Assembly (NCBI GenBank): GCA_963576565.1 | Contig: OY755038.1 | Span: 140,670,206-140,734,205, forward strand | Direction of reading: 5' to 3' | Origin: Aspidapion aeneum | Taxonomy: Eukaryota > Arthropoda > Insecta > Coleoptera > Brentidae | Length of the DNA: 64,000 bases | Shown: piece after piece, positions 7,975 to 60,741 of the stretch | Layout of the letters: each line of letters starts with the position of its first letter | Numbering within the stretch: the stretch's first letter is position 1 | Notes under the pieces: model-generated | Database searches by the model: none | Told to the model about the DNA's origin: nothing | The model's input: the letters and a program-made list of their open reading frames with translations, nothing else | Program-made: the position numbers and the translations under genes

Positions 7975-8044
7975 ATTTTTAGTTTTGTTGCTTTCTTGGG
8001 GATGTGGTTCTAATAAAACTAGCAAATACGGATTCACATATATT

Positions 8045-9785: not shown

Positions 9786-9807
9786 GCCTAAACAAAGCCT
9801 CGGAGCA

Positions 9808-12620: not shown

Positions 12621-12650
12621 ACCGACATAGTAGTAGTAATAAATCTAACA

Positions 12651-14135: not shown

Positions 14136-14163
14136 CTGAAGAAGGTCTTTGGACCGAAACGTC
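14136..14163 (+). ncRNA. Hammerhead-like motif, right arm of PLE 2
   Basis: CTGAAGA, stem II GGTC/GACC, GAAACGTC: the mirror copy of 8045-8072. It lies near the outer end of the inverted repeat, where PLE terminal-repeat hammerheads are expected. Stem I shows only two clear pairs beside the core. Confidence 0.45.
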
Positions 14164-14265
14164 AATATATGTGAATCCGTATTTGCTAGTTTTATTAGAA
14201 CCACATCCCCAAGAAACCAACAAAACTAAAAATATAAAATATATGGTTCAAGAAAAAAGAAAAGT

Positions 14266-22765: not shown

Positions 22766-22776
22766 TCGTAAAAAAC
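22766..22776 (+). repeat. Target site duplication, left copy
   Basis: TCGTAAAAAAC here is repeated exactly at 44557-44567 and occurs once in the polymerase reading frame that the insert splits. Depending on where the terminal repeat is started, the true duplication is 5-11 bp. Confidence 0.75.
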
Positions 22777-23165
22777 GGATGACGTTCACAATGTCGAAAT
22801 ACATATAATCGAAATTTAAAATCTTGAACTCATTATATCGAAAATCAAAATCTCGAACAATCAAAATTTCGAATAATTAAAACATAGAAAATCAAAATGT
22901 CACAAATCAAAATCTCGAAAAATCGAAATGTAGAAAATAATAATATCGAAAATTAAAATATCGAAAATTAAAATGTCGAATTGAAAATTGTCGAATAATT
23001 AAAATATCGAAAATTAAAATATCGAAATTACAAAATATCGAAAATACAAATATCGAAAAATTAAAATCTCAAATAACCAAAATGTCGAATACTAAAAATG
23101 TCGAAAATCAAAATATGGAAACTACAAAATATCGAAAAATTACAATCTCAAATAATCAAAATGTC
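22777..23165 (+). repeat. Left terminal inverted repeat with TCGA-rich subterminal units
   Basis: Imperfect 15-19-bp units of the form AAAATATCGAAAATTA, AAAATGTCGAAT and AAAATCTCGAAC. The order of variants mirrors the right end (for example GTAGAAAATAATAATATCG occurs in both), so it is a true inverted repeat rather than shared composition. Confidence 0.85.
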
Positions 23166-23372
23166 AAAATGTTAAGTCAAAGATTTGAAAGTAATCAACG
23201 TCATGGACAAAAAAGATATTCAATTTATTTTAAATCAAAAAGGCAAAAAGCAAATCTATTTGAACGGTTTTTTTTTAACCAAGAGAAAAGTAGTGGCCAT
23301 GCAATATATTGGAGGTGCACTAACTATACAAGTGGATGCAAAGCCAGGATAATTAACCAAAATACAGATAGG
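23160..23372 (+). pseudogene. FLYWCH zinc-finger fragment cut off by the satellite
   Basis: The open frame contains SQRFESNQRHGQKRYSIYF, then FERFFFNQEKSSGHAIYWRC, then SGCKARI. This matches the FLYWCH pattern: conserved F and Y, the W-R-C with first Cys, and C-K-A-R with second Cys. The final His part of the zinc site should come 10-20 residues later, but the satellite begins at 23371, so the finger is incomplete. FLYWCH fingers bind DNA and occur in insect MULE transposases. Frames running on into the satellite (repeating a GLVRF pattern) are meaningless. Confidence 0.7.
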
Positions 23373-26300
23373 TTTGGTTTGGTTAGGTTTGGTTAGGTTT
23401 GGTTAGGTTTGGTTAGGTTTGGTTAGGTTTGGTTAGGTTTGGTTAGGTTTGGTTAGGTTTGGTTAGGTTTGGTTAGGTTTGGTTAGGTTTGGTTAGGTTT
23501 GGTTAGGTTTGGTTAGGTTTGGTTAGGTTTGGTTAGGTTTGGTTAGGTTTGGTTAGGTTTGGTTAGGTTTGGTTAGGTTTGGTTAGGTTTGGTTAGGTTT
23601 GGTTAGGTTTGGTTAGGTTTGGTTAGGTTTGGTTAGGTTTGGTTAGGTTTGGTTAGGTTTGGTTAGGTTTGGTTAGGTTTGGTTAGGTTTGGTTAGGTTT
23701 GGTTAGGTTTGGTTAGGTTTGGTTAGGTTTGGTTAGGTTTGGTTAGGTTTGGTTAGGTTTGGTTAGGTTTGGTTAGGTTTGGTTAGGTTTGGTTAGGTTT
23801 GGTTAGGTTTGGTTAGGTTTGGTTAGGTTTGGTTAGGTTTGGTTAGGTTTGGTTAGGTTTGGTTAGGTTTGGTTAGGTTTGGTTAGGTTTGGTTAGGTTT
23901 GGTTAGGTTTGGTTAGGTTTGGTTAGGTTTGGTTAGGTTTGGTTAGGTTTGGTTAGGTTTGGTTAGGTTTGGTTAGGTTTGGTTAGGTTTGGTTAGGTTT
24001 GGTTAGGTTTGGTTAGGTTTGGTTAGGTTTGGTTAGGTTTGGTTAGGTTTGGTTAGGTTTGGTTAGGTTTGGTTAGGTTTGGTTAGGTTTGGTTAGGTTT
24101 GGTTAGGTTTGGTTAGGTTTGGTTAGGTTTGGTTAGGTTTGGTTAGGTTTGGTTAGGTTTGGTTAGGTTTGGTTAGGTTTGGTTAGGTTTGGTTAGGTTT
24201 GGTTAGGTTTGGTTAGGTTTGGTTAGGTTTGGTTAGGTTTGGTTAGGTTTGGTTAGGTTTGGTTAGGTTTGGTTAGGTTTGGTTAGGTTTGGTTAGGTTT
24301 GGTTAGGTTTGGTTAGGTTTGGTTAGGTTTGGTTAGGTTTGGTTAGGTTTGGTTAGGTTTGGTTAGGTTTGGTTAGGTTTGGTTAGGTTTGGTTAGGTTT
24401 GGTTAGGTTTGGTTAGGTTTGGTTAGGTTTGGTTAGGTTTGGTTAGGTTTGGTTAGGTTTGGTTAGGTTTGGTTAGGTTTGGTTAGGTTTGGTTAGGTTT
24501 GGTTAGGTTTGGTTAGGTTTGGTTAGGTTTGGTTAGGTTTGGTTAGGTTTGGTTAGGTTTGGTTAGGTTTGGTTAGGTTTGGTTAGGTTTGGTTAGGTTT
24601 GGTTAGGTTTGGTTAGGTTTGGTTAGGTTTGGTTAGGTTTGGTTAGGTTTGGTTAGGTTTGGTTAGGTTTGGTTAGGTTTGGTTAGGTTTGGTTAGGTTT
24701 GGTTAGGTTTGGTTAGGTTTGGTTAGGTTTGGTTAGGTTTGGTTAGGTTTGGTTAGGTTTGGTTAGGTTTGGTTAGGTTTGGTTAGGTTTGGTTAGGTTT
24801 GGTTAGGTTTGGTTAGGTTTGGTTAGGTTTGGTTAGGTTTGGTTAGGTTTGGTTAGGTTTGGTTAGGTTTGGTTAGGTTTGGTTAGGTTTGGTTAGGTTT
24901 GGTTAGGTTTGGTTAGGTTTGGTTAGGTTTGGTTAGGTTTGGTTAGGTTTGGTTAGGTTTGGTTAGGTTTGGTTAGGTTTGGTTAGGTTTGGTTAGGTTT
25001 GGTTAGGTTTGGTTAGGTTTGGTTAGGTTTGGTTAGGTTTGGTTAGGTTTGGTTAGGTTTGGTTAGGTTTGGTTAGGTTTGGTTAGGTTTGGTTAGGTTT
25101 GGTTAGGTTTGGTTAGGTTTGGTTAGGTTTGGTTAGGTTTGGTTAGGTTTGGTTAGGTTTGGTTAGGTTTGGTTAGGTTTGGTTAGGTTTGGTTAGGTTT
25201 GGTTAGGTTTGGTTAGGTTTGGTTAGGTTTGGTTAGGTTTGGTTAGGTTTGGTTAGGTTTGGTTAGGTTTGGTTAGGTTTGGTTAGGTTTGGTTAGGTTT
25301 GGTTAGGTTTGGTTAGGTTTGGTTAGGTTTGGTTAGGTTTGGTTAGGTTTGGTTAGGTTTGGTTAGGTTTGGTTAGGTTTGGTTAGGTTTGGTTAGGTTT
25401 GGTTAGGTTTGGTTAGGTTTGGTTAGGTTTGGTTAGGTTTGGTTAGGTTTGGTTAGGTTTGGTTAGGTTTGGTTAGGTTTGGTTAGGTTTGGTTAGGTTT
25501 GGTTAGGTTTGGTTAGGTTTGGTTAGGTTTGGTTAGGTTTGGTTAGGTTTGGTTAGGTTTGGTTAGGTTTGGTTAGGTTTGGTTAGGTTTGGTTAGGTTT
25601 GGTTAGGTTTGGTTAGGTTTGGTTAGGTTTGGTTAGGTTTGGTTAGGTTTGGTTAGGTTTGGTTAGGTTTGGTTAGGTTTGGTTAGGTTTGGTTAGGTTT
25701 GGTTAGGTTTGGTTAGGTTTGGTTAGGTTTGGTTAGGTTTGGTTAGGTTTGGTTAGGTTTGGTTAGGTTTGGTTAGGTTTGGTTAGGTTTGGTTAGGTTT
25801 GGTTAGGTTTGGTTAGGTTTGGTTAGGTTTGGTTAGGTTTGGTTAGGTTTGGTTAGGTTTGGTTAGGTTTGGTTAGGTTTGGTTAGGTTTGGTTAGGTTT
25901 GGTTAGGTTTGGTTAGGTTTGGTTAGGTTTGGTTAGGTTTGGTTAGGTTTGGTTAGGTTTGGTTAGGTTTGGTTAGGTTTGGTTAGGTTTGGTTAGGTTT
26001 GGTTAGGTTTGGTTAGGTTTGGTTAGGTTTGGTTAGGTTTGGTTAGGTTTGGTTAGGTTTGGTTAGGTTTGGTTAGGTTTGGTTAGGTTTGGTTAGGTTT
26101 GGTTAGGTTTGGTTAGGTTTGGTTAGGTTTGGTTAGGTTTGGTTAGGTTTGGTTAGGTTTGGTTAGGTTTGGTTAGGTTTGGTTAGGTTTGGTTAGGTTT
26201 GGTTAGGTTTGGTTAGGTTTGGTTAGGTTTGGTTAGGTTTGGTTAGGTTTGGTTAGGTTTGGTTAGGTTTGGTTAGGTTTGGTTAGGTTTGGTTAGGTTT

Positions 26301-29300
26301 GGTTAGGTTTGGTTAGGTTTGGTTAGGTTTGGTTAGGTTTGGTTAGGTTTGGTTAGGTTTGGTTAGGTTTGGTTAGGTTTGGTTAGGTTTGGTTAGGTTT
26401 GGTTAGGTTTGGTTAGGTTTGGTTAGGTTTGGTTAGGTTTGGTTAGGTTTGGTTAGGTTTGGTTAGGTTTGGTTAGGTTTGGTTAGGTTTGGTTAGGTTT
26501 GGTTAGGTTTGGTTAGGTTTGGTTAGGTTTGGTTAGGTTTGGTTAGGTTTGGTTAGGTTTGGTTAGGTTTGGTTAGGTTTGGTTAGGTTTGGTTAGGTTT
26601 GGTTAGGTTTGGTTAGGTTTGGTTAGGTTTGGTTAGGTTTGGTTAGGTTTGGTTAGGTTTGGTTAGGTTTGGTTAGGTTTGGTTAGGTTTGGTTAGGTTT
26701 GGTTAGGTTTGGTTAGGTTTGGTTAGGTTTGGTTAGGTTTGGTTAGGTTTGGTTAGGTTTGGTTAGGTTTGGTTAGGTTTGGTTAGGTTTGGTTAGGTTT
26801 GGTTAGGTTTGGTTAGGTTTGGTTAGGTTTGGTTAGGTTTGGTTAGGTTTGGTTAGGTTTGGTTAGGTTTGGTTAGGTTTGGTTAGGTTTGGTTAGGTTT
26901 GGTTAGGTTTGGTTAGGTTTGGTTAGGTTTGGTTAGGTTTGGTTAGGTTTGGTTAGGTTTGGTTAGGTTTGGTTAGGTTTGGTTAGGTTTGGTTAGGTTT
27001 GGTTTGGTTAGGTTTGGTTAGGTTTGGTTAGGTTTGGTTAGGTTTGGTTAGGTTTGGTTAGGTTTGGTTAGGTTTGGTTAGGTTTGGTTAGGTTTGGTTA
27101 GGTTTGGTTAGGTTTGGTTAGGTTTGGTTAGGTTTGGTTAGGTTTGGTTAGGTTTGGTTAGGTTTGGTTAGGTTTGGTTAGGTTTGGTTAGGTTTGGTTA
27201 GGTTTGGTTAGGCAGTAACGCACCCAGGAATATGTTTTTAGGGGGGCCCGAGGCCTCATAATGTCGTATTTCATGCTATTTTTGTGTTTATTTATGAAAT
27301 ATGTGGAAAATATTTACAAAAATCATAGGCTTGGGGGGGGCCCGGGCCCCGGGGCAACCCCCCTGGGTGCGCCCATGGGTTAGGTTTGGTTAGGTTTGGT
27401 TAGGTTTGGTTAGGTTTGGTTAGGTTTGGTTAGGTTTGGTTAGGTTTGGTTAGGTTTGGTTAGGTTTGGTTAGGTTTGGTTAGGTTTGGTTAGGTTTGGT
27501 TAGGTTTGGTTAGGTTTGGTTAGGTTTGGTTAGGTTTGGTTAGGTTTGGTTAGGTTTGGTTAGGTTTGGTTAGGTTTGGTTAGGTTTGGTTAGGTTTGGT
27601 TAGGTTTGGTTAGGTTTGGTTAGGTTTGGTTAGGTTTGGTTAGGTTTGGTTAGGTTTGGTTAGGTTTGGTTAGGTTTGGTTAGGTTTGGTTAGGTTTGGT
27701 TAGGTTTGGTTAGGTTTGGTTAGGTTTGGTTAGGTTTGGTTAGGTTTGGTTAGGTTTGGTTAGGTTTGGTTAGGTTTGGTTAGGTTTGGTTAGGTTTGGT
27801 TAGGTTTGGTTAGGTTTGGTTAGGTTTGGTTAGGTTTGGTTAGGTTTGGTTAGGTTTGGTTAGGTTTGGTTAGGTTTGGTTAGGTTTGGTTAGGTTTGGT
27901 TAGGTTTGGTTAGGTTTGGTTAGGTTTGGTTAGGTTTGGTTAGGTTTGGTTAGGTTTGGTTAGGTTTGGTTAGGTTTGGTTAGGTTTGGTTAGGTTTGGT
28001 TAGGTTTGGTTAGGTTTGGTTAGGTTTGGTTAGGTTTGGTTAGGTTTGGTTAGGTTTGGTTAGGTTTGGTTAGGTTTGGTTAGGTTTGGTTAGGTTTGGT
28101 TAGGTTTGGTTAGGTTTGGTTAGGTTTGGTTAGGTTTGGTTAGGTTTGGTTAGGTTTGGTTAGGTTTGGTTAGGTTTGGTTAGGTTTGGTTAGGTTTGGT
28201 TAGGTTTGGTTAGGTTTGGTTAGGTTTGGTTAGGTTTGGTTAGGTTTGGTTAGGTTTGGTTAGGTTTGGTTAGGTTTGGTTAGGTTTGGTTAGGTTTGGT
28301 TAGGTTTGGTTAGGTTTGGTTAGGTTTGGTTAGGTTTGGTTAGGTTTGGTTAGGTTTGGTTAGGTTTGGTTAGGTTTGGTTAGGTTTGGTTAGGTTTGGT
28401 TAGGTTTGGTTAGGTTTGGTTAGGTTTGGTTAGGTTTGGTTAGGTTTGGTTAGGTTTGGTTAGGTTTGGTTAGGTTTGGTTAGGTTTGGTTAGGTTTGGT
28501 TAGGTTTGGTTAGGTTTGGTTAGGTTTGGTTAGGTTTGGTTAGGTTTGGTTAGGTTTGGTTAGGTTTGGTTAGGTTTGGTTAGGTTTGGTTAGGTTTGGT
28601 TAGGTTTGGTTAGGTTTGGTTAGGTTTGGTTAGGTTTGGTTAGGTTTGGTTAGGTTTGGTTAGGTTTGGTTAGGTTTGGTTAGGTTTGGTTAGGTTTGGT
28701 TAGGTTTGGTTAGGTTTGGTTAGGTTTGGTTAGGTTTGGTTAGGTTTGGTTAGGTTTGGTTAGGTTTGGTTAGGTTTGGTTAGGTTTGGTTAGGTTTGGT
28801 TAGGTTTGGTTAGGTTTGGTTAGGTTTGGTTAGGTTTGGTTAGGTTTGGTTAGGTTTGGTTAGGTTTGGTTAGGTTTGGTTAGGTTTGGTTAGGTTTGGT
28901 TAGGTTTGGTTAGGTTTGGTTAGGTTTGGTTAGGTTTGGTTAGGTTTGGTTAGGTTTGGTTAGGTTTGGTTAGGTTTGGTTAGGTTTGGTTAGGTTTGGT
29001 TAGGTTTGGTTAGGTTTGGTTAGGTTTGGTTAGGTTTGGTTAGGTTTGGTTAGGTTTGGTTAGGTTTGGTTAGGTTTGGTTAGGTTTGGTTAGGTTTGGT
29101 TAGGTTTGGTTAGGTTTGGTTAGGTTTGGTTAGGTTTGGTTAGGTTTGGTTAGGTTTGGTTAGGTTTGGTTAGGTTTGGTTAGGTTTGGTTAGGTTTGGT
29201 TAGGTTTGGTTAGGTTTGGTTAGGTTTGGTTAGGTTTGGTTAGGTTTGGTTAGGTTTGGTTAGGTTTGGTTAGGTTTGGTTAGGTTTGGTTAGGTTTGGT

Positions 29301-32300
29301 TAGGTTTGGTTAGGTTTGGTTAGGTTTGGTTAGGTTTGGTTAGGTTTGGTTAGGTTTGGTTAGGTTTGGTTAGGTTTGGTTAGGTTTGGTTAGGTTTGGT
29401 TAGGTTTGGTTAGGTTTGGTTAGGTTTGGTTAGGTTTGGTTAGGTTTGGTTAGGTTTGGTTAGGTTTGGTTAGGTTTGGTTAGGTTTGGTTAGGTTTGGT
29501 TAGGTTTGGTTAGGTTTGGTTAGGTTTGGTTAGGTTTGGTTAGGTTTGGTTAGGTTTGGTTAGGTTTGGTTAGGTTTGGTTAGGTTTGGTTAGGTTTGGT
29601 TAGGTTTGGTTAGGTTTGGTTAGGTTTGGTTAGGTTTGGTTAGGTTTGGTTAGGTTTGGTTAGGTTTGGTTAGGTTTGGTTAGGTTTGGTTAGGTTTGGT
29701 TAGGTTTGGTTAGGTTTGGTTAGGTTTGGTTAGGTTTGGTTAGGTTTGGTTAGGTTTGGTTAGGTTTGGTTAGGTTTGGTTAGGTTTGGTTAGGTTTGGT
29801 TAGGTTTGGTTAGGTTTGGTTAGGTTTGGTTAGGTTTGGTTAGGTTTGGTTAGGTTTGGTTAGGTTTGGTTAGGTTTGGTTAGGTTTGGTTAGGTTTGGT
29901 TAGGTTTGGTTAGGTTTGGTTAGGTTTGGTTAGGTTTGGTTAGGTTTGGTTAGGTTTGGTTAGGTTTGGTTAGGTTTGGTTAGGTTTGGTTAGGTTTGGT
30001 TAGGTTTGGTTAGGTTTGGTTAGGTTTGGTTAGGTTTGGTTAGGTTTGGTTAGGTTTGGTTAGGTTTGGTTAGGTTTGGTTAGGTTTGGTTAGGTTTGGT
30101 TAGGTTTGGTTAGGTTTGGTTAGGTTTGGTTAGGTTTGGTTAGGTTTGGTTAGGTTTGGTTAGGTTTGGTTAGGTTTGGTTAGGTTTGGTTAGGTTTGGT
30201 TAGGTTTGGTTAGGTTTGGTTAGGTTTGGTTAGGTTTGGTTAGGTTTGGTTAGGTTTGGTTAGGTTTGGTTAGGTTTGGTTAGGTTTGGTTAGGTTTGGT
30301 TAGGTTTGGTTAGGTTTGGTTAGGTTTGGTTAGGTTTGGTTAGGTTTGGTTAGGTTTGGTTAGGTTTGGTTAGGTTTGGTTAGGTTTGGTTAGGTTTGGT
30401 TAGGTTTGGTTAGGTTTGGTTAGGTTTGGTTAGGTTTGGTTAGGTTTGGTTAGGTTTGGTTAGGTTTGGTTAGGTTTGGTTAGGTTTGGTTAGGTTTGGT
30501 TAGGTTTGGTTAGGTTTGGTTAGGTTTGGTTAGGTTTGGTTAGGTTTGGTTAGGTTTGGTTAGGTTTGGTTAGGTTTGGTTAGGTTTGGTTAGGTTTGGT
30601 TAGGTTTGGTTAGGTTTGGTTAGGTTTGGTTAGGTTTGGTTAGGTTTGGTTAGGTTTGGTTAGGTTTGGTTAGGTTTGGTTAGGTTTGGTTAGGTTTGGT
30701 TAGGTTTGGTTAGGTTTGGTTAGGTTTGGTTAGGTTTGGTTAGGTTTGGTTAGGTTTGGTTAGGTTTGGTTAGGTTTGGTTAGGTTTGGTTAGGTTTGGT
30801 TAGGTTTGGTTAGGTTTGGTTAGGTTTGGTTAGGTTTGGTTAGGTTTGGTTAGGTTTGGTTAGGTTTGGTTAGGTTTGGTTAGGTTTGGTTAGGTTTGGT
30901 TAGGTTTGGTTAGGTTTGGTTAGGTTTGGTTAGGTTTGGTTAGGTTTGGTTAGGTTTGGTTAGGTTTGGTTAGGTTTGGTTAGGTTTGGTTAGGTTTGGT
31001 TAGGTTTGGTTAGGTTTGGTTAGGTTTGGTTAGGTTTGGTTAGGTTTGGTTAGGTTTGGTTAGGTTTGGTTAGGTTTGGTTAGGTTTGGTTAGGTTTGGT
31101 TAGGTTTGGTTAGGTTTGGTTAGGTTTGGTTAGGTTTGGTTAGGTTTGGTTAGGTTTGGTTAGGTTTGGTTAGGTTTGGTTAGGTTTGGTTAGGTTTGGT
31201 TAGGTTTGGTTAGGTTTGGTTAGGTTTGGTTAGGTTTGGTTAGGTTTGGTTAGGTTTGGTTAGGTTTGGTTAGGTTTGGTTAGGTTTGGTTAGGTTTGGT
31301 TAGGTTTGGTTAGGTTTGGTTAGGTTTGGTTAGGTTTGGTTAGGTTTGGTTAGGTTTGGTTAGGTTTGGTTAGGTTTGGTTAGGTTTGGTTAGGTTTGGT
31401 TAGGTTTGGTTAGGTTTGGTTAGGTTTGGTTAGGTTTGGTTAGGTTTGGTTAGGTTTGGTTAGGTTTGGTTAGGTTTGGTTAGGTTTGGTTAGGTTTGGT
31501 TAGGTTTGGTTAGGTTTGGTTAGGTTTGGTTAGGTTTGGTTAGGTTTGGTTAGGTTTGGTTAGGTTTGGTTAGGTTTGGTTAGGTTTGGTTAGGTTTGGT
31601 TAGGTTTGGTTAGGTTTGGTTAGGTTTGGTTAGGTTTGGTTAGGTTTGGTTAGGTTTGGTTAGGTTTGGTTAGGTTTGGTTAGGTTTGGTTAGGTTTGGT
31701 TAGGTTTGGTTAGGTTTGGTTAGGTTTGGTTAGGTTTGGTTAGGTTTGGTTAGGTTTGGTTAGGTTTGGTTAGGTTTGGTTAGGTTTGGTTAGGTTTGGT
31801 TAGGTTTGGTTAGGTTTGGTTAGGTTTGGTTAGGTTTGGTTAGGTTTGGTTAGGTTTGGTTAGGTTTGGTTAGGTTTGGTTAGGTTTGGTTAGGTTTGGT
31901 TAGGTTTGGTTAGGTTTGGTTAGGTTTGGTTAGGTTTGGTTAGGTTTGGTTAGGTTTGGTTAGGTTTGGTTAGGTTTGGTTAGGTTTGGTTAGGTTTGGT
32001 TAGGTTTGGTTAGGTTTGGTTAGGTTTGGTTAGGTTTGGTTAGGTTTGGTTAGGTTTGGTTAGGTTTGGTTAGGTTTGGTTAGGTTTGGTTAGGTTTGGT
32101 TAGGTTTGGTTAGGTTTGGTTAGGTTTGGTTAGGTTTGGTTAGGTTTGGTTAGGTTTGGTTAGGTTTGGTTAGGTTTGGTTAGGTTTGGTTAGGTTTGGT
32201 TAGGTTTGGTTAGGTTTGGTTAGGTTTGGTTAGGTTTGGTTAGGTTTGGTTAGGTTTGGTTAGGTTTGGTTAGGTTTGGTTAGGTTTGGTTAGGTTTGGT

Positions 32301-35300
32301 TAGGTTTGGTTAGGTTTGGTTAGGTTTGGTTAGGTTTGGTTAGGTTTGGTTAGGTTTGGTTAGGTTTGGTTAGGTTTGGTTAGGTTTGGTTAGGTTTGGT
32401 TAGGTTTGGTTAGGTTTGGTTAGGTTTGGTTAGGTTTGGTTAGGTTTGGTTAGGTTTGGTTAGGTTTGGTTAGGTTTGGTTAGGTTTGGTTAGGTTTGGT
32501 TAGGTTTGGTTAGGTTTGGTTAGGTTTGGTTAGGTTTGGTTAGGTTTGGTTAGGTTTGGTTAGGTTTGGTTAGGTTTGGTTAGGTTTGGTTAGGTTTGGT
32601 TAGGTTTGTTAGGTTTGGTTAGGTTTGGTTAGGTTTGGTTAGGTTTGGTTAGGTTTGGTTAGGTTTGGTTAGGTTTGGTTAGGTTTGGTTAGGTTTGGTT
32701 AGGTTTGGTTAGGTTTGGTTAGGTTTGGTTAGGTTTGGTTAGGTTTGGTTAGGTTTGGTTAGGTTTGGTTAGGTTTGGTTAGGTTTGGTTAGGTTTGGTT
32801 AGGTTTGGTTAGGTTTGGTTAGGTTTGGTTAGGTTTGGTTAGGTTTGGTTAGGTTTGGTTAGGTTTGTTAGGTTTGGTTAGGTTTGGTTAGGTTTGGTTA
32901 GGTTTGTTAGGTTGGTTAGGTTTGGTTAGGTTTGGTTAGGTTTGGTTAGGTTTGGTTAGGTTTGGTTAGGTTTGGTTAGGTTTGGTTAGGTTTGGTTAGG
33001 TTTGGTTAGGTTTGGTTAGGTTTGGTTAGGTTTTGGTTAGGTTTTGTGGTTAGGTTTGGTTAGGTTTGGTTAGATTCGGTTAGGTTCGGTTAGGTTTGGT
33101 TATTTGGTTAGGTTTGGTTAGGTTTGGTTAGGTTTGGTTAGGTTTGGTTTAGGTTTGGTTAGGTTTGGTTAGGTTTGGTTAGGTTTGGTTAGGTTTGGTT
33201 AGGTTTGGTTAGGTTTGGTTAGGTTTGGTTAGGTTTGGTTAGGTTTGGTTAGGTTTGGTTAGGTTTGGTTAGGTTTGGTTAGGTTTGGTTAGGTTTGGTT
33301 AGGTTTGGTTAGGTTTGGTTAGGTTTGGTTAGGTTTGGTTAGGTTTGGTTAGGTTTGGTTAGGTTTGGTTAGGTTTGGTTAGGTTTGGTTAGGTTTGGTT
33401 AGGTTTGGTTAGGTTTGGTTAGGTTTGGTTAGGTTTGGTTAGGTTTGGTTAGGTTTGGTTAGGTTTGGTTAGGTTTGGTTAGGTTTGGTTAGGTTGGTTA
33501 GGTTTGGTTAGGTTTGGTTAGGTTTGGTTAGGTTTGGTTAGGTTTGGTTAGGTTTGGTTAGGTTTGGTTAGGTTTGGTTAGGTTTGGTTAGGTTTGGTTA
33601 GTTTGGTTAGGTTTGGTTAGGTTTGGTTAGGTTTGGTTAGGTTTGGTTAGGTTTGGTTAGGTTTGGTTAGGTTTGGTTAGGTTTGGTTAGGTTTGGTTAG
33701 GTTGGTTAGGTTGGTTAGGTTGGTTAGGTTTGGTTAGGTTTGGTTAGGTTTGGTTAGGTTTGGTTAGGTTTGGTTAGGTTTGGTTAGGTTTGGTTAGGTT
33801 TGGTTAGGTTTGGTTAGGTTTGGTTAGGTTTGGTTAGGTTTGGTTAGGTTGGTTAGGTTTGGTTAGGTTTGGTTAGGTTTGGTTAGGTTTGGTTAGGTTT
33901 GGTTAGTTGGTTGGTTAGGTTTGGTTAGGTTTGGTTAGGTTTGGTTAGGTTTGGTTAGGTTTGGTTAGGTTTGGTTAGGTTTGGTTAGGTTTGGTTAGGT
34001 TTGGTTAGGTTTGGTTAGGTTTGGTTTGGTTAGGTTTGGTTAGGTTTGGTTAGGTTTGGTTAGGTTTGGTTAGGTTTGGTTAGGTTTGGTTAGGTTTGGT
34101 TAGGTTTGGTTAGGTTTGGTTAGGTTTGGTTAGGTTTGGTTAGGTTGGTTAGGTTTGGTTAGGTTGGTTAGGTTTGGTTAGGTTTGGTTAGGTTTGGTTA
34201 GGTTTGGTTAGGTTTGGTTAGGTTTGGTTAGGTTTGGTTAGGTTTGGTTAGGTTTGGTTAGGTTTGGTTAGGTTTGGTTAGGTTTGGTTAGGTTTGGTTA
34301 GGTTGGTTTGGTTAGGTTGTTAGGTTTGGTTAGGTTTGGTTAGGTTTGGTTAGGTTTGGTTAGGTTGGTTAGGTTTGGTTAGGTTTGGTTAGGTTTGGTT
34401 AGGTTTGGTTAGGTTTGGTTAGGTTTGGTTAGGTTTGGTTAGGTTTGGTTAGGTTTGGTTAGGTTTGGTTAGGTTTGGTTAGGTTTGGTTAGGTTTGGTT
34501 AGGTTTGGTTAGGTTTGGTTAGGTTTGGTTAGGTTTGGTTAGGTTTGGTTAGGTTTGGTTAGGTTTGGTTAGGTTTGGTTAGGTTTGGTTAGGTTTGGTT
34601 AGGTTTGGTTAGGTTTGGTTAGGTTTGGTTAGGTTTGGTTAGGTTTGGTTAGGTTTGGTTAGGTTTGGTAGGTTTGGTTAGGTTTGGTTAGGTTTGGTTA
34701 GGTTTGGTTAGGTTTGGTTAGGTTTGGTTAGGTTTGGTTAGGTTTGGTTAGGTTTGGTTAGGTTTGGTTAGGTTGGTTAGGTTTGGTTAGGTTTGGTTAG
34801 GTTTGGTTAGGTTTGGTTAGGTTTGGTTAGGTTTGGTTAGGTTTGGTTAGGTTTGGTTAGGTTTGGTTAGGTTTGGTTAGGTTTGGTTAGGTTTGGTTAG
34901 GTTTGGTTAGGTTTGGTTAGGTTTGGTTAGGTTTGGTTAGGTTTGGTTAGGTTTGGTTAGGTTTGGTTAGGTTTGGTTAGGTTTGGTTAGGTTTGGTTAG
35001 GTTTGGTTAGGTTTGGTTAGGTTTGGTTAGGTTTGGTTAGGTTTGGTTAGGTTTGGTTAGGTTTGGTTAGGTTTGGTTAGGTTTGGTTAGGTTTGGTTAG
35101 GTTTGGTTAGGTTTGGTTAGGTTTGGTTAGGTTTGGTTAGGTTTGGTTAGGTTTGGTTAGGTTTGGTTAGGTTTGGTTAGGTTTGGTTAGGTTTGGTTAG
35201 GTTGGTTAGGTTTGGTTAGGTTTGGTTAGGTTTGGTTAGGTTTGGTTAGGTTTGGTTAGGTTGGTTAGGTTTGGTTAGGTTTGGTTAGGTTTGGTTAGGT

Positions 35301-36270
35301 TTGGTTAGGTTTGGTTAGGTTTGGTTAGGTTTGGTTAGTTTGGTTAGGTTGGTTAGGTTTGGTTAGGTTTGGTTAGGTTTGGTTAGGTTAGGTTTGGTTA
35401 GGTTTGGTTAGGTTTGGTTAGGTTTGGTTAGGTTTGGTTAGGTTTGGTTAGGTTTGGTTAGGTTTGGTTAGGTTTGGTTAGGTTTGGTTAGGTTTGGTTA
35501 GGTTTGGTTAGGTTTGGTTAGGTTTGGTTAGGTTTGGTTAGGTTTGGTTAGGTTTGGTTAGGTTTGGTTAGGTTTGGTTAGGTTTGGTTAGGTTTGGTTA
35601 GGTTTGGTTAGGTTTGGTTAGGTTTGGTTAGGTTTGGTTAGGTTTGGTTAGGTTTGGTTAGGTTTGGTTAGGTTTGGTTAGGTTTGGTTAGGTTTGGTTA
35701 GGTTTGGTTAGGTTTGGTTAGGTTTGGTTAGGTTTGGTTAGGTTTGGTTAGGTTTGGTTAGGTTTGGTTAGGTTGGTTAGGTTTGGTTAGGTTTGGTTAG
35801 GTTTGGTTAGGTTTGGTTAGGTTTGGTTAGGTTTGGTTAGGTTTGGTTAGGTTTGGTTAGGTTTGGTTAGGTTTGGTTAGGTTTGGTTAGGTTTGGTTAG
35901 GTTTGGTTAGGTTTGGTTAGGTTTGGTTAGGTTTGGTTAGGTTTGGTTAGGTTTGGTTAGGTTTGGTTAGGTTTGGTTAGGTTTGGTTAGGTTTGGTTAG
36001 GTTTGGTTAGGTTTGGTTAGGTTTGGTTAGGTTTGGTTAGGTTTGGTTAGGTTTGGTTAGGTTTGGTTAGGTTTGGTTAGGTTTGGTTAGGTTTGGTTAG
36101 GTTTGGTTAGGTTTGGTTAGGTTTGGTTAGGTTTGGTTAGGTTTGGTTAGGTTTGGTTAGGTTTGGTTAGGTTTGGTTAGGTTTGGTTAGGTTTGGTTAG
36201 GTTTGGTTAGGTTTGGTTAGGTTTGGTTAGGTTTGGTTAGGTTTGGTTAGGTTTGGTTAGGTTTGGTTGG
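23371..36270 (+). repeat. TTAGGTTTGG decamer satellite, G-rich strand on plus
   Basis: From 23381 to 32606 the decamer is nearly perfect apart from the MITE at 27213-27376 and a five-base phase change at about 27001. From 32607 on, single-base indels become frequent (9- and 11-base units). The decamer is two pentamers, TTAGG plus TTTGG. Pentamer-sized slips (TTTGG-TTTGG at 23371-23385 and 27001; TTAGG-TTAGG near 35385) show that the basic unit is five bases. TTAGG is the common arthropod telomere repeat. Confidence 0.97.
27213..27376 (+). mobile_element. hAT-type MITE inserted in the satellite
   Basis: Starts CAGTAACGCACCCAGG and ends GGGTGCGCCCAT, with an 8-base flanking repeat differing at one base (TGGTTAGG / GGGTTAGG). 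It carries GC-rich inner ends (GGGGGGCCCG, CCCGGGCCCC). A second, opposite-strand copy is at 53293-53494, which independently defines the ends. CAG-type termini and an 8-bp duplication are hAT features. Confidence 0.75.
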
Positions 36271-39200
36271 ACCTAACCAAACCTAACCAAACCTAACCAA
36301 ACCTAACCAAACCTAACCAAACCTAACCAAACCTAACCAAACCTAACCAAACCTAACCAAACCTAACCAAACCTAACCAAACCTAACCAAACCTAACCAA
36401 ACCTAACCAAACCTAACCAAACCTAACCAAACCTAACCAAACCTAACCAAACCTAACCAAACCTAACCAAACCTAACCAAACCTAACCAAACCTAACCAA
36501 ACCTAACCAAACCTAACCAAACCTAACCAAACCTAACCAAACCTAACCAAACCTAACCAAACCTAACCAAACCTAACCAAACCTAACCAAACCTAACCAA
36601 ACCTAACCAAACCTAACCAAACCTAACCAAACCTAACCAAACCTAACCAAACCTAACCAAACCTAACCAAACCTAACCAAACCTAACCAAACCTAACCAA
36701 ACCTAACCAAACCTAACCAAACCTAACCAAACCTAACCAAACCTAACCAAACCTAACCAACCTAACCAAACCTAACCAAACCTAACCAAACCTAACCAAA
36801 CCTAACCAAACCTAACCAAACCTAACCAAACCTAACCAAACCTAACCAAACCTAACCAAACCTAACCAAACCTAACCAAACCTAACCAAACCTAACCAAA
36901 CCTAACCAAACCTAACCAAACCTAACCAAACCTAACCAAACCTAACCAAACCTAACCAAACCTAACCAAACCTAACCAAACCTAACCAAACCTAACCAAA
37001 CCTAACCAAACCTAACCAAACCTAACCAAACCTAACCAAACCTAACCAAACCTAACCAAACCTAACCAAACCTAACCAAACCTAACCAAACCTAACCAAA
37101 CCTAACCAAACCTAACCAAACCTAACCAAACCTAACCAAACCTAACCAAACCTAACCAAACCTAACCAAACCTAACCAAACCTAACCAAACCTAACCAAA
37201 CCTAACCAAACCTAACCAAACCTAACCAACCTAACCAAACCTAACCAAACCTAACCAAACCTAACCAAACCTAACCAAACCTAACCAAACCTAACCAAAC
37301 CTAACCAAACCTAACCAAACCTAACCAAACCTAACCAAACCTAACCAAACCTAACCAAACCTAACCAAACCTAACCAACCTAACCAAACCTAACCAAACC
37401 TAACCAAACCTAACCAAACCTAACCAAACCTAACCAAACCTAACCAAACCTAACCAAACCTAACCAAACCTAACCAAACCTAACCAAACCTAACCAAACC
37501 TAACCAAACCTAACCAAACCTAACCTAACCAAACCTAACCAAACCTAACCAAACCTAACCAAACCTAACCAAACCTAACCAAACCTAACCAAACCTAACC
37601 AAACCTAACCAAACCTAACCAAACCTAACCAAACCTAACCAAACCTAACCAAACCTAACCGAACCTAACCGAACCTAACCGAATCTAACCAAACCTAACC
37701 AAACCTAACCAAACCTAACCAACCTAACCAAACCTAACCAAACCTAACCAAACCTAACCAAACCTAACCAAACCTAACCAAAACCTAACCAAACCTAACC
37801 AAACCTAACCAAACCTAACCAAACCTAACCAAACCTAACCAAACCTAACCAAACCCTAACCAAACCTAACCAAACCTAACCAAACCTAACCAAACCTAAC
37901 CAAACCTAACCAAACCTAACCAAACCTAACCAAACCTAACCAAACCTAACCAAACTAACCAAACCTAACCAAACCTAACCAAACCTAACCAAACCTAACC
38001 AAACCTAACCAAACCTAACCAAACCAACCAACCTAACCAAACCTAACCAAACCTAACCAAACCTAACCAAACCTAACCAAACCTAACCAAACCTAACCAA
38101 ACCAAACAAACCTAACCAAACCTAACCAAACCTAACCAAACCTAACCAAACCTAACCAAACCTAACCAAACCTAACCAAACCTAACCAAACCTAACCAAA
38201 CCTAACCAAACCTAAACCAAACCTAACCAAACCTAACCAAAACCTAACCAAACCTAACCAACCCTAACCAAACCTACCAAACCTAACCAACACTAACCAA
38301 ACCAAACCTAACCAACAACCTAACCAAACCTAACCAAACCTAACCAAACCTACCAAACCTAACCAAACCTAACCAAACCTAACCAAACCTAACCCAAACC
38401 TAACCAAACCTAACCAAACCTAACCAACCTAACCAAACCTAACCAAACCTAACCAAACCTAACCAAACCTAACCAAACCTAACCAAACCTAACCAAACCT
38501 AACCAAACCTAACCAAACCTAACCAAACCTAACCAAACCTAACCAAACCTAACCAAACCTAACCAAACCTAACCAAACCTAAACCAAACCTAACCAAACC
38601 TAACCAAACCTAACCAAACCTAACCAAACCTAACCAAACCTAACCAAACCTAACCAACCCTAACCAAACCTAACCAAACCTAACCAAACCTAACCAAACC
38701 TAACCAAACCTAACCAAACCTAACCAAACCTAACCAAACCTAACCAAACCTAACCAACCTACCAACCCTAACCAAACCTAACCAAACCTAACCAAACCTA
38801 ACCAACCTAACCAAACCTAACCAAACCTAACCAAACCTAACCAAACCTAACCAAACCTAACCAAACCTAACCAAACCTAACCAAACCTAACCAAACCTAA
38901 CCAAACCTAACCAAACCTAACCAAACCTAACCAAACCTAACCAAACCTAACCAAACCTAACCAAACCTAACCAAACCTAACCAAACCTAACCAAACCTAA
39001 CCAAACCTAACCAAACCTAACCAAACCTAACCAAACCTAACCAAACCTAACCAAACCTAACCAAACCTAACCAAACCTAACCAAACCTAACCAACCTAAC
39101 CAAACCTAACCAAACCTAACCAAACCTAACCAAACCTAACCAAACCTAACCAAACCTAACCAAACCTAACCAAACCTACACCAAACCTAACCAAACCTAA

Positions 39201-41390
39201 CCAAACCTAACCAAACCTAACCAAACCTAACCAAACCTAACAAACCTAACCAAACCTAACCAAACCTAACCAAACCTAACCAAACCTAACCAAACCTAAC
39301 CAAACCTAACCAAACCTAACCAACCTAACCAAACCTAACCAAACCTAACCAAACCTAACCAAACCTAACCAAACCTAACCAAACCTAACCAAACCTAACC
39401 AAACCTAACAAACCTAACCAAACCTAACCAAACCTAACCAAACCTAACCAAACCTAACCAAACCTAACCAAACCTAACCAAACCTAACCAAACCTAACCA
39501 AACCTAACCAAACCTAACCAAACCTAACCAAACCTAACCAAACCTAACCAAACCTAACCAACCCTAACCAACCTAACCAAACCTAACCAAACCTAACCAA
39601 ACCTAACCAAACCTAACCAAACCTAACCAAACCTAACCAAACCTAACCAAACCTAACCAAACCTAACCAAACCTACCAAACCTAACCCAACCTAACCAAA
39701 CCAACCCAACCTAACCAAAACTAACCAAACCTAACCAAACCTAACCAAACCTAACCAAACCTAACCAAACCTAACCAAACCTAACCAAACCTAACCAAAC
39801 CTAACCAAACCTAACCAAAACCTAACCAAACCTAACCAAACCTAACCAAACCTAACCAAACCTAACCAAACCTAACCAAACCTAACCAAACCTAACCAAC
39901 CTAACCAAACCCTAACCAAACCTAACCAAACCTAACCAAACCTAACCAAACCTAACCAAACCAACCAAACCTAACCAAACCTAACCAAACCTAACCAAAC
40001 CTAACCAAACCAACCAAACCTAACCAAACCCTAACCAAACCTAACCAAACCTAACCAAACCTAACCAACCTAACCAAACCTAACCAAACCTAACCAAACC
40101 TAACCAAACCTAACCAAACCTAACCAAACCTAACCAAACCTAACCAAACCTAACCAAACCTAACCAAACCTAACCAAACCTAACCAAACCTAACCAAACC
40201 AAACCAAACCTAACCAAACCAAACCAAACCTAACCAAACCAAACCAAACCTAACCAAACCTAACCAAACCTAACCAAACCTAACCAAACCTAACCAAACC
40301 TAACCAAACCTACCAAACCTAACCAAACCTAACCAAACCTACCAAACCTAACCAAACCTAACCAAACCTAACCAAACCTAACCAAAACCTAACCAAACCT
40401 AACCAAACCTAACCAAACCTAACCAAACCTAACCAAACCTAACCAAACCTAACCAAACCTAACCAAACCTAACCAAACCTAACCAAACCTAACCAAACCT
40501 AACCAAACCTAACCAAACCTAACCAAACCTAACCAAACCTAACCAAACCTAACCAAACCTAACCAAACCTAACCAAACCTAACCAAACCTAACCAAACCT
40601 AACCAAACCTAACCAACCTAACCAAACCTAACCAAACCTAACCAAACCTAACCAAACCTAACCAAACCTAACCAAACCTAACCAAACCTAACCAAACCTA
40701 ACCAAACCTAACCAAACCTAACCAAACCTAACCAAACCTAACCAAACCTAACCAAACCTAACCAAACCTAACCAAACCTAACAAACCTAACCAAACCTAA
40801 CCAAACCTAACCAAACCTAACCAAACCTAACCAAACCTAACCAAACCTAACCAAACCTAACCAAACCTAACCAAACCTAACCAAACCTAACCAAACCTAA
40901 CCAAACCTAACCAAACCTAACCAAACCTAACCAAACCTAACCAAACCTAACCAAACCTAACCAAACCTAACCAAACCTAACCAAACCTAACCAAACCTAA
41001 CCAAACCTAACCAACCTAACCAAACCTAACCAAACTAACCAAACCTAACCAAACCTAACCAAACCTAACCAAACCTAACCAAACCTAACCAAACCTAACC
41101 AAACCTAACCAAACCTAACCAAACCTAACCAAACCTAACCAAACCTAACCAAACCTAACCAAACCTAACCAAACCTAACCAAACCTAACCAAACCTAACC
41201 AAACCTAACCAAACCTAACCAAACCTAACCAACCTAACCAAACCTAACCAAACCTAACCAAACCTAACCAAACCTAACCAAACCTAACCAAACCTAACCA
41301 AACCTAACCAAACCTAACCAAACCTAACCAAACCTAACCAAACCTAACCAAACCTAACCAAACCTAACCAAACCTAACCAAACCTAACTA
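36271..41390 (-). repeat. Inverted block of the decamer satellite
   Basis: At 36270/36271 the repeat flips from TTAGGTTTGG to CCTAACCAAA (junction GGTTGGACCTAACC) and flips back at about 41390 (CCTAACTAGGTTTGG). The block carries dozens of indels and a few CCGAA variants (37650-37690), mirroring the rare CGG variants at 33070-33090. Confidence 0.95.
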
Positions 41391-41560
41391 GGTTTGGTTA
41401 GGTTTGGTTAGGTTTGGTTAGGTTTGGTTAGGTTTGGTTAGGTTTGGTTAGGTTTGGTTAGGTTTGGTTAGGTTTGGTTAGGTTTGGTTAGGTTTGGTTA
41501 GGTTTGGTTAGGTTTGGTTAGGTTTGGTTAGGTTTGGTTAGGTTTGGTTAGGTTTGGTTA
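41391..41560 (+). repeat. TTAGGTTTGG decamers, clean short block
   Basis: Seventeen error-free decamers between the inverted block and the TTCGG block. Confidence 0.95.
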
Positions 41561-43790
41561 GGTTCGGTTAGGTTCGGTTAGGTTCGGTTAGGTTCGGTTA
41601 GGTTCGGTTAGGTTCGGTTAGGTTCGGTTAGGTTCGGTTAGGTTCGGTTAGGTTCGGTTAGGTTCGGTTAGGTTCGGTTAGGTTCGGTTAGGTTCGGTTA
41701 GGTTCGGTTAGGTTCGGTTAGGTTCGGTTAGGTTCGGTTAGGTTCGGTTAGGTTCGGTTAGGTTCGGTTAGGTTCGGTTAGGTTCGGTTAGGTTCGGTTA
41801 GGTTCGGTTAGGTTCGGTTAGGTTCGGTTAGGTTCGGTTAGGTTCGGTTAGGTTCGGTTAGGTTCGGTTAGGTTCGGTTAGGTTCGGTTAGGTTCGGTTA
41901 GGTTCGGTTAGGTTCGGTTAGGTTCGGTTAGGTTCGGTTAGGTTCGGTTAGGTTCGGTTAGGTTCGGTTAGGTTCGGTTAGGTTCGGTTAGGTTCGGTTA
42001 GGTTCGGTTAGGTTCGGTTAGATTCGGTTAGGTTCGGTTAGGTTCGGTTAGGTTCGGTTAGGTTCGGTTAGGTTCGGTTAGGTTCGGTTAGGTTCGGTTA
42101 GGTTCGGTTAGGTTCGGTTAGGTTCGGTTAGGTTCGGTTAGGTTCGGTTAGGTTCGGTTAGGTTCGGTTAGGTTCGGTTAGGTTCGGTTAGGTTCGGTTA
42201 GGTTCGGTTAGGTTCGGTTAGGTTCGGTTAGGTTCGGTTAGGTTCGGTTAGGTTCGGTTAGGTTCGGTTAGGTTCGGTTAGGTTCGGTTAGGTTCGGTTA
42301 GGTTCGGTTAGGTTCGGTTAGGTTCGGTTAGGTTCGGTTAGGTTCGGTTAGGTTCGGTTAGGTTCGGTTAGGTTCGGGTAGGTTCGGGTAGGTTCGGTTA
42401 GGTTCGGTTAGGTTCGGTTAGGTTCGGTTAGGTTCGGTTAGGTTCGGTTAGGTTCGGTTAGGTTCGGTTAGGTTCGGTTAGGTTCGGTTAGGTTCGGTTA
42501 GGTTCGGTTAGGTTCGGTTAGGTTCGGTTAGGTTCGGTTAGGTTCGGTTAGGTTCGGTTAGGTTCGGTTAGATTCGGTTAGGTTCGGTTAGGTTCGGTTA
42601 GGTTCGGTTAGGTTCGGTTAGGTTCGGTTAGGTTCGGTTAGGTTCGGTTAGGTTCGGTTAGGTTCGGTTAGGTTCGGTTAGGTTCGGTTAGGTTCGGTTA
42701 GGTTCGGTTAGGTTCGGTTAGGTTCGGTTAGGTTCGGTTAGGTTCGGTTAGGTTCGGTTAGGTTCGGTTAGGTTCGGTTAGGTTCGGTTAGGTTCGGTTA
42801 GGTTCGGTTAGGTTCGGTTAGGTTCGGTTAGGTTCGGTTAGGTTCGGTTAGGTTCGGTTAGGTTCGGTTAGGTTCGGTTAGGTTCGGTTAGGTTCGGTTA
42901 GGTTCGGTTAGGTTCGGTTAGGTTCGGTTAGGTTCGGTTAGGTTCGGTTAGGTTCGGTTAGGTTCGGTTAGGTTCGGTTAGGTTCGGTTAGGTTCGGTTA
43001 GGTTCGGTTAGGTTCGGTTAGGTTCGGTTAGGTTCGGTTAGGTTCGGTTAGGTTCGGTTAGGTTCGGTTAGGTTCGGTTAGGTTCGGTTAGGTTCGGTTA
43101 GGTTCGGTTAGGTTCGGTTAGGTTCGGCTAGGTTCGGTTAGGTTCGGTTAGGTTCGGTTAGGTTCGGTTAGGTTCGGTTAGGTTCGGTTAGGTTCGGTTA
43201 GGTTCGGTTAGGTTCGGTTAGGTTCGGTTAGGTTCGGTTAGGTTCGGTTAGGTTCGGTTAGGTTCGGTTAGGTTCGGTTAGGTTCGGTTAGGTTCGGTTT
43301 AGTTCGGTTAGGTTCGGTTAGGTTCGGTTAGGTTCGGTTAGGTTCGGTTAGGCTCGGTTAGGCTCGGTTAGGTTCGGTTAGCTTCGGTTAGGTTCGGTTA
43401 GGCTCGGTTAGGCTCGGTTAGGCACGGTTAGGCTCGGTTAGGTTCGGTTAGGTTCGGTTAGGTTCGGTTAGGTTCGGTTAGGTTCGGTTAGGTTCGGTTA
43501 GGTTCGGTTAGGTTCGGTTAGGTTCGGTTAGGTTCGGTTAGGTTCGGTTAGGTTCGGTTAGGTTCGGTTAGGTTCGGTTAGGTTCGGTTAGGTTCGGTTA
43601 GGTTCGGTTAGGTTCGGTTAGGTTCGGTTAGGTTCGGTTAGGTTCGGTTAGGTTCGGTTAGGTTCGGTTAGGTTCGGTTAGGTTCGGTTAGGTTCGGTTA
43701 GGTTCGGTTAGGTTCGGTTAGGTTCGGTTAGGTTCGGTTAGGTTCGGTTAGGTTCGGTTAGGTTCGGTTAGGTTCGGTTAGGTTCGGTTA
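41561..43790 (+). repeat. TTAGGTTCGG variant satellite block
   Basis: About 223 decamers in which the second pentamer is TTCGG. Length is perfectly regular. Variants are substitutions only (GATTCGG at 42021 and 42571, a doubled GGGTA near 42377, and GGCTCGG and GGCACGG clustered at 43350-43440). Each unit contains one CpG. Confidence 0.97.
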
Positions 43791-43898
43791 GGTTTGGTTA
43801 GGTTTGTTTATGTTTGGTTGGCTCGTTGGGTTGATTGGTTAGGTTGGTTGAGTGTTTAGGTTGGTTGATTACGATTAGTTAGGTTAGGTTAGATTAGG
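43791..43898 (+). repeat. Degenerate right edge of the array with plain TTAGG units
   Basis: Diverged units (GGTTGGCTCG, GGTTGATTACG) end in AGTTAGGTTAGGTTAGATTAGG at 43876-43897 (more than one TTAGG in a row). The left edge, by contrast, is sharp and pure. Confidence 0.8.
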
Positions 43899-44556
43899 TT
43901 CTGTTATTTTTGATATTTTATAGTTACAATAATTTTTTTTCTCGATATTTTCTTGTATTGTTTATTGTATTGTAATGTTTTTAATTCTAGATTTTAATTT
44001 TCGATATTAAAATTTTCGACATTTTGTAATTGCCATATTTTAATTTTCGACTTTTATTATTTGATATTTTGATTATTTGAGATTTTAATTTTCCGATATT
44101 TTGTAGTTTCGATATTTGGATTTTCGATATTTTGTTATTTCGATATTTTAATTATTCGACATTTTGTAATTCGACATTTTAATTTTCGATATTTTAATTT
44201 TTGATATTATTATTTTCTACATTTCGATTTTTGAGATTTTTCGAGATTTTGATTTTCGACATTTTGTTATAATTTATTTAAGATTTTAATTTTTCGATAT
44301 TTGGATTTTCGATATTATGTAATTTTGATATTTTCACTATTCGACATTTTTTATTTCGACATTTTAATTTTCGATATTTTAACTTTCGATATTATTATTT
44401 TCTACATTTTGATGTTTCGAGATTTTCATTTTCGACATTTTAATTATCTATGTTTTAATTATTCGACATTTTGAATATTCGAGATTTTAATTTTCGATAT
44501 AAAGAGTTCGAGATTTTGATTTTCGATTAAATGTATTTCGACATTGTAAACGTCAC
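43899..44556 (-). repeat. Right terminal inverted repeat with TCGA-rich subterminal units
   Basis: Units such as TTTTCGATATTTTAATTTT run to 44540 and end with CGACATTGTAAACGTCAC. The outer ~400 bp mirror 22777-23165; the inner part is longer here than on the left. Confidence 0.85.
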
Positions 44557-44567
44557 TCGTAAAAAAC
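44557..44567 (+). repeat. Target site duplication, right copy
   Basis: TCGTAAAAAAC, identical to 22766-22776. Confidence 0.75.

Positions 44568-60702: not shown

Positions 60703-60741
<39 letters not shown>

What the first reader, a model, noticed from the sequence alone, without database searches (positions are those of the whole stretch)
22766..44567. A 21.8-kb MULE-like element packed with telomere-derived satellite splits a Polinton-like polymerase gene
Both borders can be read: an 11-bp direct repeat, matching inverted ends, and a polymerase reading frame that resumes on the other side with nothing lost. Inside, a FLYWCH fragment points to a Mutator-like element, but its transposase has given way to about 2,000 decamers. 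Either a transposon acquired a telomere-like seed that expanded inside it, or elements of this kind spread satellites. The latter would be a route for seeding interstitial telomere-like arrays.
Basis: partly seen in the sequence, partly recalled or inferred. Interest (0 to 1): 0.9.

Follow-up and report, generated by a model that had tools for sequence, protein, structure and literature searches.

The report
Transposon hosting an expanding telomere-like array
In what is probably an insect genome, a jumping gene carries a short DNA tract resembling the repeat found at the chromosome ends, and in this copy the tract has likely grown in place to about 2,000 repeats, which suggests one way that telomere-like blocks could be seeded inside chromosomes.

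Summary
Positions 22777-44558 (21,782 bp) are one insertion with matching inverted ends and a 9-bp (not 11-bp) target duplication, inside a Polinton-like polymerase gene; 11 of 13 paralogous loci have the site uninterrupted. It belongs to a foldback-type family in which 15 of 18 paired copies have an exact 9-bp duplication. One relative carries this family's A end, DNA 97% identical to the FLYWCH piece and a MULE transposase domain, with no decamers at the window's breakpoint.

The array most likely grew from a seed the family already carried. At the same internal place one short relative has 2 decamers and another 44, followed by the same core that follows the window's ~2,057. Other copies carry 1-57 TTCGG units there, mostly in 5-bp length steps; TTCGG also forms 7 of 16 chromosome ends read. 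In-place expansion is favoured; transposition demonstrably moves short seeds; transport of long arrays is not shown. Decamer arrays also occur at about 33 loci, mostly without this family's ends in the flanks read, so this family is not their only source. A second FLYWCH-bearing foldback element lies beside another decamer array.

The parts
22768..22776 (.). left copy of the 9-bp target duplication GTAAAAAAC
   Evidence: sequence; same length in relatives
22777..23170 (+). A-type end of the element (foldback-type subrepeats)
   Evidence: 101 matches in the genome, 40 candidates scored
23176..23366 (+). 5' fragment of a FLYWCH-MULE transposase gene (FLYWCH domain only)
   Evidence: PF04500 1.5e-7; 97% to L079, 95% to C4 locus
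23371..36268 (+). array block 1, GGTTAGGTTT, about 1,290 units, almost perfect up to about 32.6 kb
27213..27377 (.). 165-bp GC-rich insert within block 1, looking like a small mobile element
   Evidence: by eye similar to a stretch of L079
36271..41388 (-). array block 2, same decamer in opposite orientation, about 515 units
41389..43819 (+). array block 3, GGTTAGGTTC, about 250 units
43820..43906 (+). native core that also follows the 2- and 44-unit tracts of L010 and L101
43907..44558 (-). B-type end of the element
   Evidence: 84 matches in the genome, 40 candidates scored
44559..44567 (.). right copy of the 9-bp target duplication
22238..22717 (-). interrupted Polinton-like DNA polymerase B gene, piece left of the element
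   Evidence: 601 relatives, 120 listed
44559..45199 (-). interrupted Polinton-like polymerase gene, piece right of the element (upstream part of the gene)
   Evidence: 4 of 120 database proteins match both flanks; empty sites at paralogous loci

Best explanation
The 21,782-bp insertion at 22777-44558 is a copy of a foldback-type transposon family with 9-bp target duplications, likely of the FLYWCH-MULE kind, whose internal GGTTAGGTTT tract (2 units in one short relative, 44 in another) has likely expanded in place to about 2,000 units. Shown: the family ends and duplications; one relative with the A end, the FLYWCH stretch and a MULE domain; a GGTTN tract at the same position and orientation in sister copies; its great length differences. 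Inferred: the core picked up a telomere-type pentamer tract once; copies carried it to new sites by transposition; after insertion the tract lengthened by slippage or unequal exchange in pentamer or decamer steps, most of the transposase gene was lost, and break repair made the inverted block.
For: 15 of 18 paired copies with exact 9-bp duplications, one more with 10 bp; shuffled flank pairs 0 of 33,997. L010: 1,046-bp copy, 38-bp tract with 2 decamers; L101: 1,291-bp copy with duplication GCAAAATAG, 474-bp tract with 44 GGTTAG units, 40 in a perfect run; both followed by the core that follows the window's array. That core 26-mer has three exact matches: L010, L101, window. In 15 short copies, read A to B, TTCGG 177 against CCGAA 26 and TTAGG 109 against CCTAA 1; flanks 57/41 and 82/78. 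Comparable tracts in the main group: 17 of 26 module hits, 16 of these a multiple of 5 bp long, 45-525 bp, 1-57 TTCGG. L079 links A end, FLYWCH stretch and PF10551 (3.4e-9). A second long array with the same FLYWCH piece and a B end lies at C4:53.2 Mb.
Against: The decamer is a dispersed satellite (38,549 exact 40-mers; window plus L026 hold 2,104, 5.5%), so import is possible. Both copies with the FLYWCH piece have long arrays, which would also fit an array present before they moved. The inverted block and the GGTTAGGTTC block are not explained by slippage. The C4 array joins FLYWCH about 110 bp earlier and lacks the core; no A end was found in the 4.9 kb read to its left. L010's own flanks show no clean duplication. 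L079's B end was not reached, so its borders are unproven. No intact autonomous copy was found.
Confidence: 0.64

Rival explanations
1. The array was imported: the genome's dispersed decamer satellite entered the element at its short homologous seed by gene conversion, break repair or reinsertion of extrachromosomal circles, rather than growing from the seed.
For: 38,549 exact 40-mers genome-wide; array edges in 27 clusters on 11 contigs, window included; GGTTAGGTTC stretches like block 3 occur elsewhere (L055, L089); the window's array is built of three blocks with two orientation switches.
Against: An intermediate of 44 units sits at the seed in L101; sister copies expand a different unit, TTCGG, at a corresponding place, which needs no import of decamers.
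Confidence: 0.2
2. The array moved as a whole: a progenitor FLYWCH-MULE copy already held kilobases of decamers and transposed with them into the polymerase gene.
For: Clean 9-bp duplication around the whole 21.8 kb; C4:53.2 Mb shares FLYWCH piece, decamers and B end.
Against: The two arrays differ at both edges: about 110 bp apart in FLYWCH, core present in one and absent in the other, GGTTAGGTTC block in one only. The copies with known duplications other than the window are 0.8-3.1 kb long.
Confidence: 0.13
3. Assembly artefact: unrelated array contigs were placed between two transposon ends.
For: Long near-perfect arrays are hard to assemble; the C4 array holds a 200-N gap with the FLYWCH junction repeated after it; two orientation switches in the window.
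Against: No N in the window; exact 9-bp duplication across 21.8 kb that follows the family rule; uninterrupted order at 11 of 13 paralogous polymerase loci.
Confidence: 0.03

Closest known systems
Tm1 Mutator/Foldback family of Meloidogyne (PMC3169594; passages read)
   Same: composite foldback-type inverted ends of short tandem repeats, 9-bp duplications (45 of 53 elements with 8-10 bp there), short MITE-like copies, a FLYWCH plus MULE transposase assigned to the Phantom subclass
   Different: no telomere-type tract or kilobase internal satellite in the passages read
Tetris foldback element of Drosophila virilis (PMC4079207; passages read)
   Same: foldback element with 8-10-bp duplications in which an internal repeat amplified into satellite DNA
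   Different: 220-bp repeat of the inverted ends, not a telomere-type pentamer or decamer; no transposase found there
Interstitial telomeric sequences (review PMC6410037; passages read)
   Same: telomere-type repeats inside chromosomes; transposition by mobile elements named as a possible origin
   Different: here the carrier, the unexpanded seed and an intermediate copy can be seen
TTCGG telomeres of earwigs (PMC11829193; passages read)
   Same: same pentamer at chromosome ends
   Different: that paper reports even short interstitial TTCGG tracts as rare; here such tracts lie inside dispersed elements

Membership tests
Mutator superfamily, FLYWCH-MULE (Phantom-type) | target duplication of 8-11 bp, most often 9 | tested here: met
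   15 of 18 paired copies exact 9 bp, one 10 bp
Mutator superfamily, FLYWCH-MULE (Phantom-type) | long inverted ends | tested here: met
   about 390 and 650 bp, A and B types in each of 17 pairs
Mutator superfamily, FLYWCH-MULE (Phantom-type) | MULE transposase in the window copy | tested here: not met
   only a FLYWCH fragment; the array starts behind it
Mutator superfamily, FLYWCH-MULE (Phantom-type) | MULE transposase in a family member | tested here: met
   L079: A end, FLYWCH DNA 97% identical, PF10551 3.4e-9; the FLYWCH model was not hit in L079's broken frame, and L079's B end was not reached
Foldback-type element | inverted ends built of short tandem subrepeats | tested here: met
   15-16-bp subrepeats in both ends
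Interstitial telomeric sequence | repeat identical to the species' telomere repeat | tested here: inconclusive
   sister copies carry (TTCGG)n, identical to 7 of 16 ends read; the window's decamer mixes TTAGG with TTTGG or TTCGG
Interstitial telomeric sequence | made by telomerase or from telomeric DNA | not testable with these tools
   sequence alone does not show the source
Polinton-like element (the target gene) | protein-primed type B DNA polymerase | tested here: met
   relatives up to 58% over 89% of the piece, many carrying PF03175 (its name DNA_pol_B_2 is recalled); the piece itself hit no Pfam model; other Polinton genes not sought

The most novel reading that the evidence does not exclude
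FLYWCH-MULE foldback transposons are a seeding system for interstitial telomere-like DNA: at least two separate families (the ATCGAAAATT type here, the GCGC type at C3:99.66 Mb) carry telomere-type GGTTN cargo, plant it wherever they insert, and some insertions ripen into kilobase arrays, so that much of the genome's decamer satellite began inside such elements.
Probability: 0.27. Interest if true: 0.82.

Novelty: new variant of a known kind. Interest (0 to 1): 0.66.

Why it matters
Transposition of telomere-type repeats by mobile elements is listed as a possible origin of large interstitial telomeric blocks (PMC6410037). Here a carrier family, its target duplications, an unexpanded copy, an intermediate and two kilobase copies lie in one genome, so seeding and growth can be separated and dated. 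Such arrays matter as fragile sites and as misleading signals in telomere cytogenetics (recalled).

Tried and rejected
Rejected: (1) An 11-bp duplication: flanks of relatives fix it at 9 bp. (2) The decamer as the chromosome-end repeat: of 16 ends read, 7 are TTCGG and 9 are other sequence; none is the decamer. (3) A palindromic assembly fold at 36268-36271: variant spacing differs in the two arms. (4) A pair of inverted ends at 8041/14167 that the script picked up belongs to another repeat and was dropped, leaving 17 of 18 pairs. (5) A decamer array joined within 30 bp to this family's TTCGATATTTT repeats elsewhere: the strict pattern matched only the C4 locus. (6) Trees of the ends do not resolve which copy is closest to the window. 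(7) Paper searches (listings only apart from the passages cited) showed no report of a telomere-type array inside a MULE; subscription papers are mostly not covered.

Not done: a genome-wide count of A ends; 6 of 26 non-window array-edge clusters were not sampled; duplications of the C4 and C3 copies could not be read because their left ends were not reached.
Full report
HOST AND PLACE. The window is C1:140670206-140734205 of a 1.286-Gb genome in 149 contigs. Of the 12 listed relatives of a LINE in the window that carry an organism name, 11 are beetles (that these genera are beetles is recalled). The chromosome-end repeat found here, TTCGG, is in print for earwigs (PMC11829193, passages). The host is therefore probably an insect, species unknown.

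BORDERS. The left end reads GGATGACGTTCACAATG and the right end, reverse complemented, GAGTGACGTTTACAATG. Searching the genome with each end, 40 candidates were scored each time (of 1,826 and 2,186), giving 101 and 84 matches. A script found 18 end pairs; one was a different repeat and was dropped. Of the 17 left, window included, 14 have an exact 9-bp duplication and one an exact 10-bp one; two (L010, L029) have neither. Shuffled flank pairs (made from all 18) gave 0 of 33,997 with at most one mismatch. L101, found later, adds an exact 9-bp case: 15 of 18. In each of the 17 pairs one end is of type A (GGATGACG) and the other of type B (GAGTGACG or, once, GTGTGACG).

TARGET. The left flank encodes a Polinton-like polymerase piece; 4 of 120 listed database proteins match both flanks in the right order. 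The right flank has 13 other loci in the genome (14 rows, one locus in two pieces), and 11 of them carry the left flank on the same strand 45-99 bp away; one is 630 bp away and one lies on the opposite strand. The 11 are empty sites. In the 8 whose matches reach both edges the spacing is 45-60 bp, against about 27 bp expected for the window without the element, so a length difference of some 20-30 bp lies beside the insertion. The frame of the left piece is closed by a stop just left of the insertion, so this gene copy is broken there too.

FAMILY IDENTITY. The FLYWCH piece (window 23160-23372) has three other matches in the genome. C1:118454801-118454973 is 97% identical and lies in L079, which carries a shortened A end, the FLYWCH stretch and, in a decayed frame, a MULE transposase domain (PF10551, 3.4e-9). 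Pfam's FLYWCH model was not hit in L079's broken pieces, and its B end was not reached in the 4.5 kb read. No decamers stand where the window's FLYWCH stops: CAAAATACAGA runs on into coding sequence in L079 and into TAGGTTTGGTTTGGTTAGG in the window. The other two matches lie at C4:53.2 Mb. FLYWCH plus MULE with foldback-type ends and 9-bp duplications is how Tm1, a Phantom-type Mutator family, is described (PMC3169594, passages).

THE SEED. Short relatives (0.8-3.1 kb) have a core of GGTTN pentamers. In 15 paired short copies, read from A to B, TTCGG occurs 177 times and CCGAA 26, TTAGG 109 and CCTAA 1; the flanks of the same loci show little bias (57/41 and 82/78). In the main group the tract lies before TTCGAATTCACACC. 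Of 26 module hits, 17 have the same left anchor and can be compared: 45-525 bp long, 16 of 17 a multiple of 5 bp (the exception is 76), with 1 to 57 TTCGG; six of the 17 are from one tandem cluster, L029. TTCGGTTCGGTTCGAATTCACACC has 238 exact sites genome-wide and none for the reversed control; similar modules occur in other foldback-like repeats (L053, L078), so not all 238 belong to this family. TTCGG forms 7 of the 16 chromosome ends read, in telomere orientation, with 106-119 copies in the last 600 bp; the other 9 ends show other sequence.

THE SIZE SERIES. The window belongs to a rarer group whose core begins TTGGCTCGTTGGGTTGATTGGTTAGG; this 26-mer has three exact matches. L010 (1,046 bp) has a 38-bp tract with two decamers before it. 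L101 (1,291 bp, duplication GCAAAATAG) has a 474-bp tract with 44 GGTTAG units, 40 of them a perfect run. The window has about 2,057 units. The array therefore sits where shorter relatives have a seed, in the same orientation. L010 and L101 lack the FLYWCH piece. The C4 copy has the FLYWCH piece, more than 8.5 kb of decamers and a B end, without the core. A run of 200 N lies in its array, but the stretch right of it alone spans FLYWCH tail, array and B end. Its array starts about 110 bp earlier in FLYWCH, so the two loci did not inherit one unchanged array edge. No A end was found in the 4.9 kb read left of it.

WHAT SPEAKS AGAINST A SIMPLE STORY. The decamer is a dispersed satellite: 38,549 exact 40-mers, of which window plus L026 hold 2,104. 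Array edges marked by AAA within 30 bp fall into 27 clusters on 11 contigs, window included (merged by hand within 25 kb); with C4:53.2 Mb, L101 and four further C1 loci that makes about 33 loci. I sampled flanks of 20 of the 26 non-window clusters: one (L093) adjoins repeats 73-74% like this family's ends, one (L083) another foldback-like repeat, one (L090) a FLYWCH gene; the rest show retroelement-like genes (by eye) or other sequence. A check of 30 fetched array-flank stretches, including five from C1, found this family's ends only, weakly, at L093. L053 and L056 adjoin other foldback-like elements. Import of satellite into the seed is thus a live rival. Block 2, inverted, needs breakage and repair or is an assembly error.

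A SECOND FAMILY. At C3:99.66 Mb at least 213 perfect decamers are followed by a FLYWCH domain (7.9e-12), an ORF 37% identical over 54 residues to the L079 transposase (E 4e-11) and a foldback-like end of GCGC-rich repeats. Pfam's MULE model was not hit by the two ORFs scanned, and the two FLYWCH pieces gave no BLASTP match to each other. Similar GCGC repeats (81% over 184 bp) stand beside the array at C1:76.81 Mb. No duplication could be read there. This is a lead for the bolder reading, not proof.

MECHANISM. Shown: a family with 9-bp duplications carries an oriented telomere-type pentamer tract; tract length differs greatly between copies at one position; the window is the longest case seen. 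Inferred: slippage or unequal exchange after insertion; telomeric origin of the tract; loss of the transposase gene in connection with expansion. The nearest precedent for a foldback element turning into a satellite is Tetris (PMC4079207, passages); the review of interstitial telomeric sequences names transposition by mobile elements as a possible origin (PMC6410037, passages).

Noticed in passing
C8:44257233-44258755 (L021): A 1.5-kb copy of the family whose tract has grown to 525 bp of TTCGG, CTCGG and TTGGG pentamers: a telomere-motif expansion without decamers.
   Followed up: partly
C2:146574478-146581448 (L029) and C1:154104-154110 kb (L028): Head-to-tail clusters of family copies with shared or missing outer ends, i.e. 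whole elements becoming tandem repeats.
   Followed up: no
C3:99661500-99666000 (L102, L090, L103): FLYWCH-bearing element with GCGC-rich foldback-like end beside at least 213 perfect decamers.
   Followed up: partly
C1:76802800-76815900 (L055, L056): A segment of about 10 kb bounded by inverted CATTAACGTATTAACCGGAGGAGAC repeats seems inserted in a decamer array (by eye).
   Followed up: no
window 27213-27377: 165-bp GC-rich insert with inverted CACCCAGG ends inside the array; a similar stretch stands in L079 (by eye).
   Followed up: no
window 8041-14167: Inverted TATTGACGTTTC stretches with inverted flanks 6.1 kb apart bracket LINE reading frames.
   Followed up: no
window 5177-6549 and 59657-60761: CTGT/ACAG microsatellites next to 118-bp AAAGGGTGGGGGTAGAT repeats; the same repeats recur in several fetched loci.
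   Followed up: no
chromosome ends L038, L040, L047, L048: Four ends without TTCGG carry short AT-rich satellites (CAAAAATGT, AATTTTCATAATTTTTGAT types).
   Followed up: no
C1-C3 and other contigs, 238 sites: The module TTCGGTTCGGTTCGAATTCACACC is dispersed at 238 exact sites and is shared, in similar form, by several foldback-like repeats.
   Followed up: partly
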